Shown: positions 555 to 4,038 of the stretch, one piece after another
How the letters are laid out: each line of letters begins with the position of its first letter
Numbering within the stretch: the stretch's first letter is position 1
Source of the DNA: Acidobacteriota bacterium
GTDB taxonomy: Bacteria; Acidobacteriota; Terriglobia; Terriglobales; Acidobacteriaceae
Assembly (NCBI GenBank): GCA_021781255.1
Contig: JAJXXG010000034.1
Coordinates: 1-6,858, forward strand
Length of the DNA stretch: 6,858 bases
Direction of reading: 5' to 3'
Position numbers and translations under genes: made by a program
Notes under the pieces: generated by a model
The model's input: only the letters and a program-made list of their open reading frames with translations
Databases searched by the model: none
Told to the model about the DNA's origin: nothing

Positions 555-3164
555 ATGGCAGACGACCAGAATCCTCAGCTTCCTCTCGACGGAGCGACCC
601 CTCCTGGCGGCACAAATCTTATCCCCATCAACATTGAAGAGGAGATGCGCCGCTCTTATCTCGACTACTCGATGTCGGTGATCATCGGGCGCGCGCTGCC
701 CGATGCCCGCGACGGACTCAAGCCCGTGCACCGCCGCGTGCTTTACACCATGAGCGAGATGGGCCTGGAGCACAACAAGAAATACACCAAGTGCGCCAAA
801 GTGGTGGGCCAGGCGATGGGCGTCTACCATCCTCACGGCGATTCGGCCATCTACGACACGCTCGTGCGCATGGCGCAGCCCTTCTCGCTGCGTTATCCGC
901 TGGTCGACGGCCAGGGAAACTTCGGCTCAGTCGACGGCGACCCACCTGCAGCGATGCGTTATACCGAGTGCCGCATGGAGCGCATCGCCGGCGAGCTGCT
1001 GGCCGACATCGAGATGGAAACCGTGGACTTTGTGCCGAACTACGACGAGTCCACGCAGGAGCCGTCGGTGCTGCCCTCGCGGATTCCGAACCTGATCCTC
1101 AACGGGTCGAGCGGCATCGCAGTGGGCATGGCGACGAATATTCCGCCACACAATTTGACAGAAGTCGTCAACGCCGCAATCGAACTCGTCAAGAACCCCA
1201 AAGCGGGCCTGGCCGAAGTTCTCAAGCACGTTCACGGTCCCGACTTTCCCACCGGCGCCATTCTTTATGGCCGCAGTGGAATAGCAGAGGCGTATCGCAC
1301 AGGCCGCGGCCGTTTTGTGATGCGCGCCCGGGTCGCAATCGAAAGCGTCACGAAGGATCTCAAGGCTCTCGTGGTCACGGAGCTTCCCTACCAGGTAAAC
1401 AAGGCCACGCTCTACAAGCGCATCGCCGAGCTTGTCGACAACAAGGTCATCACCGACATCGACATCGGCTCCGACCGCACGCGCGACGAGAGCGACCGCG
1501 ACGGCATGAGGATGGTCATCGGCCTCAAGCGCGGAGCGCAGCCTGAGATTGTTCTGAACCAGCTCTACAAGCACACGCAGCTTCAGGAAAGTTTTTCCAT
1601 GATCTTCCTGGCCGTGGTCAACGGCCAGCCGCGCGAGATGGGCCTCGACGATGCCATCCGAGTCTTTATCGACCATCGCGTCGATGTCGTGCAGCGCCGC
1701 ACCGTCTACCTGCTGCGCAAGGCGCGCGAGCGCGAGCACATCCTCGAAGGCCTCAAGATTGCCCTCGACAACCTCGACACCGTAATCCGGATCATTCGCG
1801 CGTCGGCCTCCCGAGCCGAGGCGCGCGAGAATCTCTACGCGTGGGGCAAAGGCACTGAGATCGTCATTATGCTCGACCGCGAGCTGCACAGCCACGAGGA
1901 AAAGGGCCTCACCCTGCGGCAGGTCGATGCCATTCTCGAATTGCAGCTCTACCGCCTCACGCAACTCTCGGTGGACGAACTCTTGAAAGAGTTGGCCGAA
2001 ATCAGAGAAAAAATCGCTGGGTACGAGGCCATTCTGGCCAGCGAGAAGAAGCTGCGCTCGGTCATCGTCAAGGAACTCGAAGAAGTCCGTGACAAGTATG
2101 GCGACAAGCGCCGCACGGAAATTGTGGACGAGGGCGTCGAGTTGCAGCTCGAGGACCTCATCGCCGACGAGCAGGTCGCCGTCACCGTCAGCCATCAGGG
2201 CTACCTCAAGCGCACGCCCATCAGCACCTATCGCCAGCAGCGGCGCGGCGGAACGGGACGCATGGGGATGAAGACCCGCGAGGAGGATTTTGTCGCCCAG
2301 CTCATTGTCGACTCAACCCACTCCTACCTGCTCTGCTTCACCAACACCGGCCGCGTCTACTGGCTCAAGGTCTACGAGATCCCCGACGTCGGCGCGGCGG
2401 GCAAGGGCAAGTCGATGCAAAGCCTGCTCGACCTGCAGCAGGGCGAAAACGTCCGCGCCATCCTGCCCGTCCGCGACCTTGAAGAAGAGGGCAAATACAT
2501 TTTCTTCGCCACGCAAAAAGGCACGGTCAAAAAGACACCGCTCAAGGACTTCTCCAACGTCATGTCGCGGGGCATCATCGCCATCGGCATCGACTCTGAC
2601 GACGAGCTGGTCGCCGCGCGCATCACCGACCGCAGCCAGATTGTTTTTCTGGCCACGCATCTGGGCCTTGCCATCCGTTTCGAAGAGAGCGATGTGCGCT
2701 CCATGGGCCGCCCGGCCTTCGGCGTGCGCGGCATCTCGCTCATCAAGAACGACTACGTCGTAGGCGTCGCGGTCACGCCCAAGGAGCACGAGCCTGGAGC
2801 TTATCGCATTCTCTCCGTCAGCGAGAACGGCTTCGGCAAGCGCACCGACGTTGAGGAGTACCGCCTGCAAACGCGCGGCGGCAAAGGCGTGAAAAACATG
2901 GCCGTCACCGACCGCATCGGCCGTGTGAACACCATTCAGCTCGTCGACGACACCTCGGAGATGATTATCATCAGCCAGTTCGGCAAGATCATCCGCGTCG
3001 ACACCAAGACCATCCGCGCTGCCGGCCGCGCCACGCAGGGCGTGCGTCTGCTCAACCTGGAGCCGGAGGACAAGGTCGCCGCCGCCGTCATCATCCCGCC
3101 CGAAGAACTCAACGGCAATGGAAACGGCAATCACGAAGGCGAGCAGGGGACGCTGCTGCAGTAG
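555..3164 (+). CDS. gyrA: DNA gyrase subunit A
   Basis: Catalytic breakage-reunion subunit of type IIA DNA gyrase (A2B2 with GyrB), which introduces negative supercoils with ATP in the cytoplasm. It has 869 residues, normal for GyrA. The winged-helix and tower domains run from about residue 25 to 520. The active-site tyrosine is Y136 in AAMRYTECRM. The quinolone region reads YHPHGDSAIYD, with S97 and D101 at the positions of E. coli S83 and D87, so neither classical resistance residue is changed. A coiled-coil stretch lies around 390-480. The C-terminal DNA-wrapping pinwheel starts near 530 and carries a GyrA-box at 562-568 (QRRGGTG), which distinguishes it from ParC; a similar QTRGGKG occurs at 772-778. 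The tail is rich in N, G and E. The start is taken at ATG 555; an in-frame GTG at 537 would add six residues. Neither has a strong Shine-Dalgarno, so the start is the least certain part. No gyrB is adjacent. The last 77 bases are repeated at 3962-4038. Confidence 0.97.
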   Translation: MADDQNPQLPLDGATPPGGTNLIPINIEEEMRRSYLDYSMSVIIGRALPDARDGLKPVHRRVLYTMSEMGLEHNKKYTKCAKVVGQAMGVYHPHGDSAIYDTLVRMAQPFSLRYPLVDGQGNFGSVDGDPPAAMRYTECRMERIAGELLADIEMETVDFVPNYDESTQEPSVLPSRIPNLILNGSSGIAVGMATNIPPHNLTEVVNAAIELVKNPKAGLAEVLKHVHGPDFPTGAILYGRSGIAEAYRTGRGRFVMRARVAIESVTKDLKALVVTELPYQVNKATLYKRIAELVDNKVITDIDIGSDRTRDESDRDGMRMVIGLKRGAQPEIVLNQLYKHTQLQESFSMIFLAVVNGQPREMGLDDAIRVFIDHRVDVVQRRTVYLLRKAREREHILEGLKIALDNLDTVIRIIRASASRAEARENLYAWGKGTEIVIMLDRELHSHEEKGLTLRQVDAILELQLYRLTQLSVDELLKELAEIREKIAGYEAILASEKKLRSVIVKELEEVRDKYGDKRRTEIVDEGVELQLEDLIADEQVAVTVSHQGYLKRTPISTYRQQRRGGTGRMGMKTREEDFVAQLIVDSTHSYLLCFTNTGRVYWLKVYEIPDVGAAGKGKSMQSLLDLQQGENVRAILPVRDLEEEGKYIFFATQKGTVKKTPLKDFSNVMSRGIIAIGIDSDDELVAARITDRSQIVFLATHLGLAIRFEESDVRSMGRPAFGVRGISLIKNDYVVGVAVTPKEHEPGAYRILSVSENGFGKRTDVEEYRLQTRGGKGVKNMAVTDRIGRVNTIQLVDDTSEMIIISQFGKIIRVDTKTIRAAGRATQGVRLLNLEPEDKVAAAVIIPPEELNGNGNGNHEGEQGTLLQ
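3088..3164 (+). repeat. Direct repeat, copy 1: 3' end of gyrA
   Basis: These 77 bases encode the end of GyrA (from IIPPEE through the NGNGNGN stretch to LLQ and the stop). They match 3962-4038 at 74 of 77 positions, with a shift of 874 bases. The mismatches are 3104 (A against T, Glu to Asp), 3161 (CAG against CAA, silent) and 3164 (TAG against TAA). The central 56 bases, 3105-3160, are identical. Similarity stops sharply after the stop codon. Confidence 0.95.
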
Positions 3165-3178
3165 GATGTTAGGTGACA

Positions 3179-3394
3179 ATGAGTGCCAACAGGACAATTC
3201 GCAGAGTAACGGACCTCAAGGCGCAGCGAATGGAAGCCTACCGGTATTGGCAAAGCCGCACCGCGGCAGAGCGAATGGATGCTATCGAAGAGGTTGTACG
3301 GGACGTGTACTTCGCCAAGGGGATCGATCTGGACCGCATACCTTCAAACAAGACACTCGTCCGTGTCGTTCGTCCAAATTGGAAGGCAGCCTGA
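3179..3394 (+). CDS. Small conserved-type protein, putative partner of the downstream nucleotidyltransferase
   Basis: A 71-residue soluble protein with no signal peptide or membrane segment. I know no named function for it. The N-terminal half is basic (NRTIRRVTDLKAQR, residues 4-17), followed by YRYWQSR (21-27), then an amphipathic helix-like ERMDAIEEVVRDVY (31-44) and a basic, tryptophan-containing end (VRVVRPNW). From recall, similar short proteins with the YRYWQSR-type core occur directly before small nucleotidyltransferase genes, which fits the gene starting 31 nt downstream. ATG 3179 is chosen because AGGTG (3171-3175) lies just before it; a GTG at 3173 would add two residues. The gene begins 14 nt after the gyrA stop, so it could be read from the gyrA transcript. 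A role as antitoxin or regulatory partner is inference. Confidence 0.7.
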   Translation: MSANRTIRRVTDLKAQRMEAYRYWQSRTAAERMDAIEEVVRDVYFAKGIDLDRIPSNKTLVRVVRPNWKAA

Positions 3395-3926: not shown

Positions 3927-3961
3927 CGGTACGCCTTCGAGAAGAGAGAAGGCCGCCAAAA

Positions 3962-4038
3962 TCATCATCCCGCCCGATGAACTCAACGGCAATGGAAACG
4001 GCAATCACGAAGGCGAGCAGGGGACGCTGCTGCAATAA
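3962..4038 (+). pseudogene. Direct repeat, copy 2: detached gyrA 3' end
   Basis: Seventy-seven bases matching 3088-3164 at 74 positions and retaining the gyrA reading frame. It encodes IIPPDELNG, the NGNGNHEGEQ stretch and LLQ, ending in TAA at 4036-4038. Upstream similarity fades: 3952-3957 still matches (GCCGCC), but 3958-3961 is AAAA, and the preceding in-frame codons read REKAAKI in place of DKVAAAV. The fragment has no start codon of its own in frame and is not expected to make protein. It is either the original gyrA tail displaced by the inserted module or a tail carried in with it. Because both copies keep frame and stop, recombination between them would delete 874 bp and leave a complete gyrA. 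Confidence 0.9.

What the first reader, a model, noticed from the sequence alone, without database searches (positions are those of the whole stretch)
3088..4038. Two-gene cassette bracketed by direct repeats of the gyrA 3' end
The last 77 bases of gyrA (3088-3164) recur at 3962-4038 with only three differences, one of them CAG-TAG against CAA-TAA at the end. The second copy keeps frame and stop but is cut off from gyrA. Between the copies are just two small genes forming a putative toxin-antitoxin-like pair. Similarity ends abruptly at the stop codon on the 3' side and near codon VII on the 5' side. This is what is expected if an element inserts at the 3' end of an essential gene and supplies a replacement tail, as integrative elements do at tRNA genes. 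It also means that recombination between the repeats would remove the cassette and leave an intact gyrA. Linking an addiction-type module to an essential gene's tail would be a neat way to persist. No integrase is seen, so the mechanism is open: homologous capture from a relative, or a mobilised cassette.
Basis: partly seen in the sequence, partly recalled or inferred. Interest (0 to 1): 0.82.

Follow-up and report, generated by a model that had tools for sequence, protein, structure and literature searches.

The report
Toxin-antitoxin-like cassette behind gyrA's swapped tail
In a soil bacterium, a pair of genes resembling a toxin and its antidote sits directly behind an essential gene, and a leftover second copy of that gene's end suggests that the pair arrived together with a replacement tail from a close relative; similar leftovers lie beside the same pair at several other genes in related bacteria.

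Summary
In detail: 3088-3164 recurs at 3962-4038, 74 of 77 bases identical. The window is from an Acidobacteriaceae genome near Terracidiphilus. The two genes are a short helical protein (A) and a DUF6036/DUF2204-like nucleotidyltransferase (B) whose model best matches the MenT1 toxin. Of 96 A/B loci with usable flanks, 10 are closely bracketed by a duplicated end of the neighbouring gene: gyrA 3, thiC 3, an E1-beta-type gene, gatB, two unnamed; L264 and L284 add two gyrA cases. In the longer pairs the copies differ mainly synonymously (L101: 14 of 14 codons), so they diverged as working gene ends in different genomes. In L264 the sequence behind the displaced tail lies directly behind gyrA in five cassette-less relatives. 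Displaced thiC tails also bracket other cargo, so the process is general. Best reading: recombination anchored in the host gene imports a relative's gene end plus cargo and displaces the resident end, as in insertion with long target duplication and tail-swapping mitochondrial elements. No integrase was found; excision and toxicity are untested. For the window alone, local duplication is not excluded.

The parts
555..3164 (+). gyrA (DNA gyrase subunit A)
   Evidence: NCBIfam NF004043/TIGR01063 above cut-off, Pfam PF00521 and PF03989
3088..3164 (+). Copy 1: gyrA 3' end in use (codons VII... to stop TAG)
   Evidence: 74 of 77 identical to 3962-4038
3179..3394 (+). Gene A, 71 aa, candidate antitoxin; ATG 14 nt after the gyrA stop
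   Evidence: 98 homologues; homologue upstream of B in 89 of 94 B loci; predicted as two helices, pLDDT 80, pTM 0.43; no family match, no Foldseek match, one PDB sequence row at E 0.16 that is not meaningful
3426..3926 (+). Gene B, 166 aa, nucleotidyltransferase (DUF6036/DUF2204-like), candidate toxin
3927..3961 (+). Junction spacer between the B stop and copy 2 (35 nt; includes GCCGCC matching gyrA)
3962..4038 (+). Copy 2: displaced gyrA 3' end, in frame, ending CAA-TAA
4094..4130 (.). REP-like palindrome, dispersed in these genomes, seen just after gyrA in several relatives
   Evidence: matches in L011, L024, L065; sequences after gyrA; many dispersed copies in G002, G003, G005 and G006
4214..4876 (+). 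FMN reductase/flavodoxin-like gene, right flank
   Evidence: PF03358 E 6.1e-20; 36 of 79 genus genomes have a match, 3 of them (G334, G399, G411) at 71-73% identity over nearly the whole length; none found in the 80 gyrA loci
4916..6544 (-). Amino acid permease, conserved neighbour
   Evidence: PF13520; ends 317 nt behind gyrA in L005 and follows gyrA-A-B in L006 and L021

Best explanation
A tail-swapping insertion. DNA from a related genome, carrying the end of gyrA followed by the A-B pair, recombined with the resident gyrA. One side was anchored by homology inside gyrA, so gyrA now ends with the incoming tail (copy 1). The other side joined near the end of B to the resident gyrA about 77-87 bases before its stop, most likely by illegitimate or short-homology joining. 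This left the resident tail (copy 2) stranded in front of its old neighbours. The A-B pair is probably a MenAT1-like toxin-antitoxin module: B a nucleotidyltransferase toxin, A a short neutralising protein. Placed 14 nt after the gyrA stop it is probably co-expressed with gyrA. SHOWN: the repeat, its recurrence beside A-B, conservation of frame and stop in the fresh copies, the synonymous pattern in the longer pairs, empty sites for L264, and the predicted fold of B. INFERRED: the direction of transfer in the window itself, the joining mechanism, co-expression, toxicity, and retention by addiction.
For: Repeat confirmed. Recurrence: 10 of 96 A/B loci with usable flanks have a duplicated host-gene end close on both sides: WIN, L011, L020 at gyrA; L098, L101, L126 at thiC; L084 at an E1-beta-type dehydrogenase gene; L146 and L156 at minus-strand gene ends; L157 at the gatB 5' end. 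L264 and L284 add two more gyrA cases. Control: 7 of 9 comparable repeats in 1.17 Mb bracket B, while B +/-700 nt is 16% of that sequence (binomial about 8e-5, cases not fully independent). Copies diverged while coding: of the changed codons, synonymous are 14 of 14 in L101, 11 of 12 in L098, 26 of 37 in L084 (random placement gives on average 10.1, 9.1 and 28.6 non-synonymous codons; 0 of 20000 simulations were as low in each). Empty site: the sequence behind the displaced tail of L264 matches 14 other gyrA loci; in five cassette-less ones (L268, L025, L269, L292, L038) it starts 14-283 nt after the gyrA stop, 67-80% identical over 657-915 nt. Serial displacement: in L098 copy 2 is followed by a second A, and both are closest to L198. 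Displaced tails range from fresh (WIN, L011, L101) to decayed (L020, L126, L264) to not detected (L006, L003). Gene B: MenT1-like fold and active-site residues.
Against: In the window only 3 bases differ (2 synonymous codons, 1 not; P 0.14), so the window alone cannot separate import from recent local duplication. No cassette-less relative with the window's own right flank was found, and L006 has gyrA-A-B-permease with no second tail, so a late arrival of copy 2 plus the flavodoxin gene from the right is possible. In nine of the 14 loci matching L264's right flank that sequence is further from gyrA, or A-B lies between. Left edges of copy 2 cluster about 65-97 nt before the gyrA stop (four loci by BLAST, L284 by eye), which random illegitimate joining would not predict; an inherited junction could explain it. 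Of 13 gyrA loci with A and B directly behind in the same direction only 4 keep a detectable second tail behind the cassette; L284, with a truncated B, is a further case. In L101 copy 1 is closer to relatives than copy 2 is.
Confidence: 0.68

Rival explanations
1. Self-moving cassette with portable homology arms: the repeat pair tail-A-B-tail is itself the mobile unit. Because both flanks match any recipient's gyrA end, it enters an empty gyrA by ordinary RecA recombination (double crossover, or a single crossover of a circle), carrying its old B/tail junction with it.
For: B/tail junctions look inherited: L011 and L264 join at nearly the same place with B's stop in or at the tail, and L020 and L284 have junctions that can be aligned by eye. 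B sequences at gyrA are clustered in the tree (12 rows, 3 changes against shuffled mean 11.5); the three at thiC form one clade.
Against: No excised or circular form was looked for or seen. Nine of 13 same-direction gyrA cassettes have no second tail behind them. Displaced thiC tails occur around unrelated cargo.
Confidence: 0.2
2. Local event only: tandem duplication of gyrA tail-A-B followed by loss of the second A-B, unrelated to import.
For: In the window the copies are 96% identical, closer to each other than either is to the tails of the relatives compared (best 92%).
Against: Copies in L101, L098 and L084 differ mainly by synonymous changes, and L011 changed TAG to TGA while staying a stop. 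L264 shows gyrA's neighbours of relatives after copy 2. A local duplication followed by replacement of the host gene's end by a relative's allele would also give the synonymous pattern and is not excluded case by case.
Confidence: 0.08
3. Site-specific integrative element using an integrase and an attachment site in the gyrA end.
For: Position at the 3' end of a conserved gene with a replacement tail; recurrence at gyrA.
Against: No integrase found among the scanned proteins. Repeat lengths vary and host sequences are unrelated: gyrA, thiC, an E1-beta-type gene, a gatB 5' end. Copies are diverged, not identical core sites.
Confidence: 0.02
4. Assembly artefact: the contig joins two strains at the gyrA end.
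For: The window's genome is not held, so coverage cannot be checked; many relatives are metagenome bins.
Against: The arrangement recurs in 11 other loci, including contigs of 6.8 Mb (L157, G229) and 1.1-1.7 Mb (L156 G114, L146 G264), with different junctions.
Confidence: 0.05

Closest known systems
Insertion with long target duplication of restriction-modification systems (Nobusato 2000 and Furuta 2010, recalled and seen only as references; described in passages of review PMC3874152)
   Same: A small selfish gene pair with no linked mobile element, flanked by variable direct repeats in the order of 100 bp of host sequence.
   Different: Cargo is a MenT-like pair in Acidobacteriaceae; in the longer cases here the two repeats look like diverged alleles of a gene end, so the target is replaced and displaced, not simply duplicated.
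Mobile ORFs that replace C-termini of mitochondrial genes (Allomyces atp6; Glomus atp6, atp9, cox2, nad3; PMC3630166, passages read)
   Same: Incoming element brings a foreign C-terminal end fused in frame; native end is displaced behind the element; ends diverge at DNA level but largely keep the protein.
   Different: Those encode homing endonucleases that drive the process; no nuclease is recognised here.
Sequential displacement of type VI effector-immunity modules, perhaps by homology-facilitated illegitimate recombination, in Vibrio (PMC5361080, abstract and section 13 read)
   Same: One homologous anchor, one illegitimate end, older module shifted downstream, arrays of remnants (compare L098).
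   Different: There the anchor is the upstream part of the module itself; here it is an unrelated housekeeping gene.
MenAT1 toxin-antitoxin system (PMC10435456 and PMC11375011, passages read)
   Same: Nucleotidyltransferase of the same fold with T, D, K, D active-site residues; short two-helix partner encoded upstream (71 aa against 68 aa).
   Different: B matches DUF6036/DUF2204 in Pfam, with no DUF1814 match; A has no detectable similarity to the MenA1 chain; activity unknown.

Membership tests
MenAT1-type toxin-antitoxin | Toxin with MenT nucleotidyltransferase fold | tested here: met
MenAT1-type toxin-antitoxin | Active-site residues T39, D41, K137, D152 | tested here: met
   Correspond, by my reading of the profile alignment, to B T36, D38, K130, D141, present in 32, 32, 32 and 31 of 32 aligned sequences; residue roles from PMC10435456/PMC11375011
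MenAT1-type toxin-antitoxin | DUF1814 (AbiEii) domain | tested here: not met
   Pfam scan at E 0.1 returned only PF19502 and PF09970; so it is not filed as a MenAT member
MenAT1-type toxin-antitoxin | Short helical antitoxin related to MenA1, encoded upstream | tested here: inconclusive
   Position, size and two helices fit; no MenA1 match by PDB sequence profile or Foldseek, but A is short and diverged
MenAT1-type toxin-antitoxin | tRNA nucleotidyltransferase toxicity neutralised by the partner | not testable with these tools
   Needs expression experiments
Insertion with long target duplication | Cassette flanked by long, variable direct repeats of host sequence | tested here: met
   77 nt here; about 43-320 nt elsewhere
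Insertion with long target duplication | Empty allele with a single copy in a relative | tested here: inconclusive
   Met for L264, suggested for L011 by L022 (128 nt, 73%); not found for the window
Insertion with long target duplication | Cargo is a restriction-modification system (the described cases) | tested here: not met
   B is a nucleotidyltransferase; A and B have no PADLOC match. The comparison is of the insertion pattern, not of the cargo
Tail-replacing mitochondrial mobile ORFs | Foreign C-terminal end in frame, native end displaced behind the insert | tested here: inconclusive
   Anatomy and synonymous divergence fit; which copy is foreign was not resolved for the window
Tail-replacing mitochondrial mobile ORFs | Encodes a homing endonuclease | tested here: not met
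   No nuclease family in A or B
Integrase-driven integrative element | Encodes or adjoins a site-specific recombinase | tested here: not met
   None among the five main proteins scanned; other ORFs were not scanned
Homology-facilitated illegitimate recombination product | One homologous junction and one without homology | tested here: inconclusive
   Pattern fits; left junction lies somewhere in gyrA and cannot be located; right junction has 6 bases of shared GCCGCC

The most novel reading that the evidence does not exclude
Two-gene toxin-antitoxin-like cassettes in Acidobacteriaceae spread as minimal mobile units without any recombinase: each carries the duplicated end of an essential host gene (gyrA, thiC and others) as portable homology arms, so ordinary host recombination inserts it precisely behind that gene in a new genome, keeps the essential gene intact and expresses the cassette from it.
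Probability: 0.22. Interest if true: 0.82.

Novelty: new variant of a known kind. Interest (0 to 1): 0.6.

Why it matters
How chromosomal toxin-antitoxin and restriction genes move without transposases is a long-standing question. Here the scars are readable: paired gene ends of different age, empty and filled sites in related genomes, more than one colonisation of gyrA, and similar scars around other cargo. This turns 'insertion with long target duplication' into a testable tail-swap model, and it gives a signature (in-frame displaced gene ends with synonymous divergence) that can be searched for in any genome collection.

Tried and rejected
Integrase/attachment-site element: rejected, see rivals. 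Simple local duplication: disfavoured for L101, L098 and L084 by the synonymous pattern; for the window the test lacks power (P 0.14) and for L011 it is weak (P 0.03). RNA or tRNA target at the junction: no Rfam or tRNA match in the window. Defence-system label: no PADLOC match to A or B. Deciding which copy is foreign by similarity to relatives: unresolved. In the window both copies are about equally far from the gyrA tails compared; in L101 copy 1 is closer to relatives than copy 2 is, the reverse of a simple expectation for a resident copy 2. Source of the window's right flank: no flavodoxin homologue in the 80 gyrA loci; matches of 71-77% identity in 4 of 79 genus genomes, one of them partial, contexts not read. 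Neighbour orientation around all B loci: the 'divergent' label was unreliable because GC-rich genes have open shadow frames; only the presence of A (89 of 94) is used. Flank comparison by DNA: 14 of 96 loci gave a hit; in four (L003, L134, L145, L160) the repeat lies far from the cassette and is not counted. Translated flank comparison: 23 of 95 loci gave some hit at E 0.02, many of them shadow-frame or composition noise; only the loci already found by DNA are counted, plus L111 as tentative. Two control repeats not at B: L075 (REP-like non-coding) and L078 (tandem paralogue), judged by eye. gyrA tails with other cargo: in 80 genus genomes (73 with a match) only G002 and G003 had two matches, both A-B cases.

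Rows dropped: 9 loci that duplicate gyrA loci were left out of the control. Four loci (L105, L108, L139, L174) lacked the upstream flank. L246, L255, L258 and L284 were not recognised by the gyrA pattern; L284 was read by hand, and it covers the place of L246; L255 and L258 were not followed. The tree left out one short B of 100, and it does not hold the B of L264, L265, L274 or L284.

Literature: DUF6036 occurs in 0 papers held; toxin-antitoxin with target duplication, essential gene and nucleotidyltransferase, 0; Terracidiphilus with toxin-antitoxin and mobile, 0; Acidobacteri/toxin-antitoxin/gyrA/insertion/duplication of the 3, three papers holding at least four of the five terms, unrelated by title; 'long target duplication' with toxin-antitoxin, 5 papers listed, of which only PMC3874152 was opened, in passages. 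I know of no report of this case, but only this library was searched.
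Full report
CHECK OF THE OBSERVATION. The last 77 bases of gyrA (3088-3164) recur at 3962-4038 with three differences (3104, 3161, 3164); copy 2 keeps frame and stop. 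It is the longest repeat family in the window. Between the copies lie A (3179-3394, ATG 14 nt after the gyrA stop) and B (3426-3926). To the right follow 35 nt of junction, copy 2, a REP-like palindrome (4094-4130), a flavodoxin-like gene and a permease gene on the other strand.

WHERE IT IS. The window's genome is not held. A scan of genome contigs with the GyrA end returned 80 loci (the best of 231), the nearest being Acidobacteriaceae, one of them named Terracidiphilus. The closest in the cassette is L006 (Terracidiphilus sp.): gyrA-A-B-permease, cassette 85% identical, gyrA 82%, no second tail found and no flavodoxin gene between. L005 has a remnant of A after gyrA, then the permease.

THE CASSETTE IS COMMON AND OFTEN AT GYRA. 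A B homologue (E <= 0.001) occurs in 132 of 398 genomes of the family. Of 108 distinct gyrA ends collected, 103 have at least 800 nt downstream; 20 of these have A or B within 4 kb, and 14 have A starting within 150 nt on the same strand. The collection is biased towards relatives of the window. The B tree (99 sequences) puts the gyrA-located copies apart: one starred clade with the window, L006, L008 and L097, another, less well supported group with L011, L020, L021, L031, L004, L016, L102 and L175; inverted copies near gyrA lie in a third, starred group. gyrA was thus probably colonised more than once by different members of the family.

TAIL DUPLICATION RECURS, ALSO AT OTHER GENES. Of 100 distinct B loci, 96 had usable flanks. 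Ten have a direct repeat close on both sides of the cassette: at gyrA the window (97%/76 nt), L011 (97%/71) and L020 (70%/98); at thiC L098 (86%/91), L101 (88%/103) and L126 (94%, in two pieces); at an E1-beta-type dehydrogenase gene L084 (87%/320); at minus-strand gene ends L146 (89%/75) and L156 (81%/43); at the gatB 5' end L157 (80%/74) (the names thiC, E1-beta and gatB were recognised by me from the translations, not by a family search). L264 (78%/65) and L284 (truncated B followed by a gyrA tail) were found later. L008 has two gyrA tails in tandem in front of the cassette, across an NN gap. As a control, 173 loci (1.17 Mb) contain 9 direct repeats of at least 50 nt and 75% identity spaced 400-1600 nt; 7 bracket B (L011, L084, L098, L101, L146, L157, window), the other two are L075 and L078.

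COPIES DIVERGED AS WORKING GENE ENDS. Changed codons, synonymous/non-synonymous: L101 14/0, L098 11/1, L084 26/11, L011 2/2, window 2/1. Random placement gives as few non-synonymous changes in 0 of 20000 trials for the first three, P 0.03 for L011 and P 0.14 for the window. In L011 the stop changed from TAG to TGA. A pseudogene copy decaying in place would not behave so; two alleles from different genomes would. Other copies do decay: L020 has in-frame deletions, L126 lost its stop, L264 reads TGG at the stop.

EMPTY SITES. The sequence behind the displaced tail and REP of L264 matches 14 other gyrA loci. In five of them, which show no A or B in the sequence held (L268, L025, L269, L292, L038), it begins 14-283 nt after the gyrA stop, 67-80% identical over 657-915 nt; in the others it lies further away, or A-B lies between (L016). 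L011 shows a shorter match to L022 (+89; 73% over 128 nt). So in L264 copy 2 marks the native gyrA end. L014 and L016 have near-identical gyrA ends (95.9% over 339 nt); L014 has no cassette, L016 has A-B behind a REP element and no second tail. For the window no such relative was found.

SERIAL EVENTS AND OTHER CARGO. In L098 copy 2 is followed by a second A, and both are closest to L198 among the loci compared: it looks like an older cassette pushed downstream by a newer one. A search with the ThiC end gave matches in 290 of 398 genomes, 9 with two matches. Three of these are A-B cases. Three others (G307, G094, G374) carry a second thiC tail 88-91% identical, 364-855 nt away, with no A or B match: G307 and G094 share a different small ORF, G374 has about 0.7 kb without a recognised gene; changed codons are 11 synonymous and 4 not in L300 (G374), 8 and 5 in L296 (G307). 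The remaining three (G175, G235, G360) have the second match on another contig. The tail swap is therefore a more general process in this family, with A-B one passenger. For gyrA no second tail with other cargo turned up in 80 genus genomes.

MECHANISM. The best fit is recombination anchored by homology inside the host gene, with the other end joined illegitimately; this gives the incoming end plus cargo, then the displaced resident end. A similar route was proposed for effector-immunity displacement in Vibrio (PMC5361080, abstract and section 13). Restriction-modification genes are described as inserting with long, variable target duplications (PMC3874152, passages), and fungal mitochondrial mobile ORFs swap gene ends in the same geometry (PMC3630166, passages). 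Two facts are not fully explained: the left edge of copy 2 at gyrA clusters about 65-97 nt before the stop, and B ends inside or at the tail in L011, L264 and L098. They would fit a junction inherited with the cassette and re-used by plain homologous recombination; that is my novel reading.

LIMITS. The window's own junction rests on one contig; the direction of transfer in the window is inferred; toxicity, excision and addiction are untested; many relatives are metagenome bins.

Noticed in passing
L296 1490-1979 (G307), L297 (G094), L300 1434-2464 (G374): Displaced thiC ends bracketing cargo other than A-B: a shared small ORF of about 68 aa in G307 and G094, and about 0.7 kb without a recognised gene in G374.
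   Followed up: partly
window 4094-4130; L084 1964-1999; after gyrA in L011 (behind copy 2), L014, L016, L022, L024, L026, L033, L037: A dispersed REP-like palindrome (core GGTCTC...GAGACC or similar, with GGGGCACCC) often sits just after gyrA and near cassette junctions.
   Followed up: partly
L014 +80 to +1100 after gyrA: The cassette-less L014 carries in this place a reverse-strand ORF that looks like a REP-associated transposase (recognised by eye, not by a search), while L016 has A-B and what looks like a PIN-type toxin pair (also by eye): the gyrA end looks like an insertion hot spot.
   Followed up: no
L002, L007, L015, L034, L290: A-B cassettes on the opposite strand 0.1-3 kb behind gyrA; in the B tree, which holds all but L290 (L166 covers the same region of that genome), they group apart from the same-strand ones.
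   Followed up: partly
L008 2528-2674: Two gyrA tails in tandem separated by NN before the cassette; an assembly gap that may hide another cassette copy.
   Followed up: no
L111: Possible older displaced end of another gene beside A-B, seen only at protein level (56% over 23 aa).
   Followed up: no
L011, L264, L098 end of B: B's stop codon lies in or at the displaced host-gene tail, so the insertion junction seems to have trimmed B's own end.
   Followed up: partly
window 111-139 and 243-271: Inverted repeat, 29 nt, 86% complementary, 103 nt apart, upstream of gyrA.
   Followed up: no
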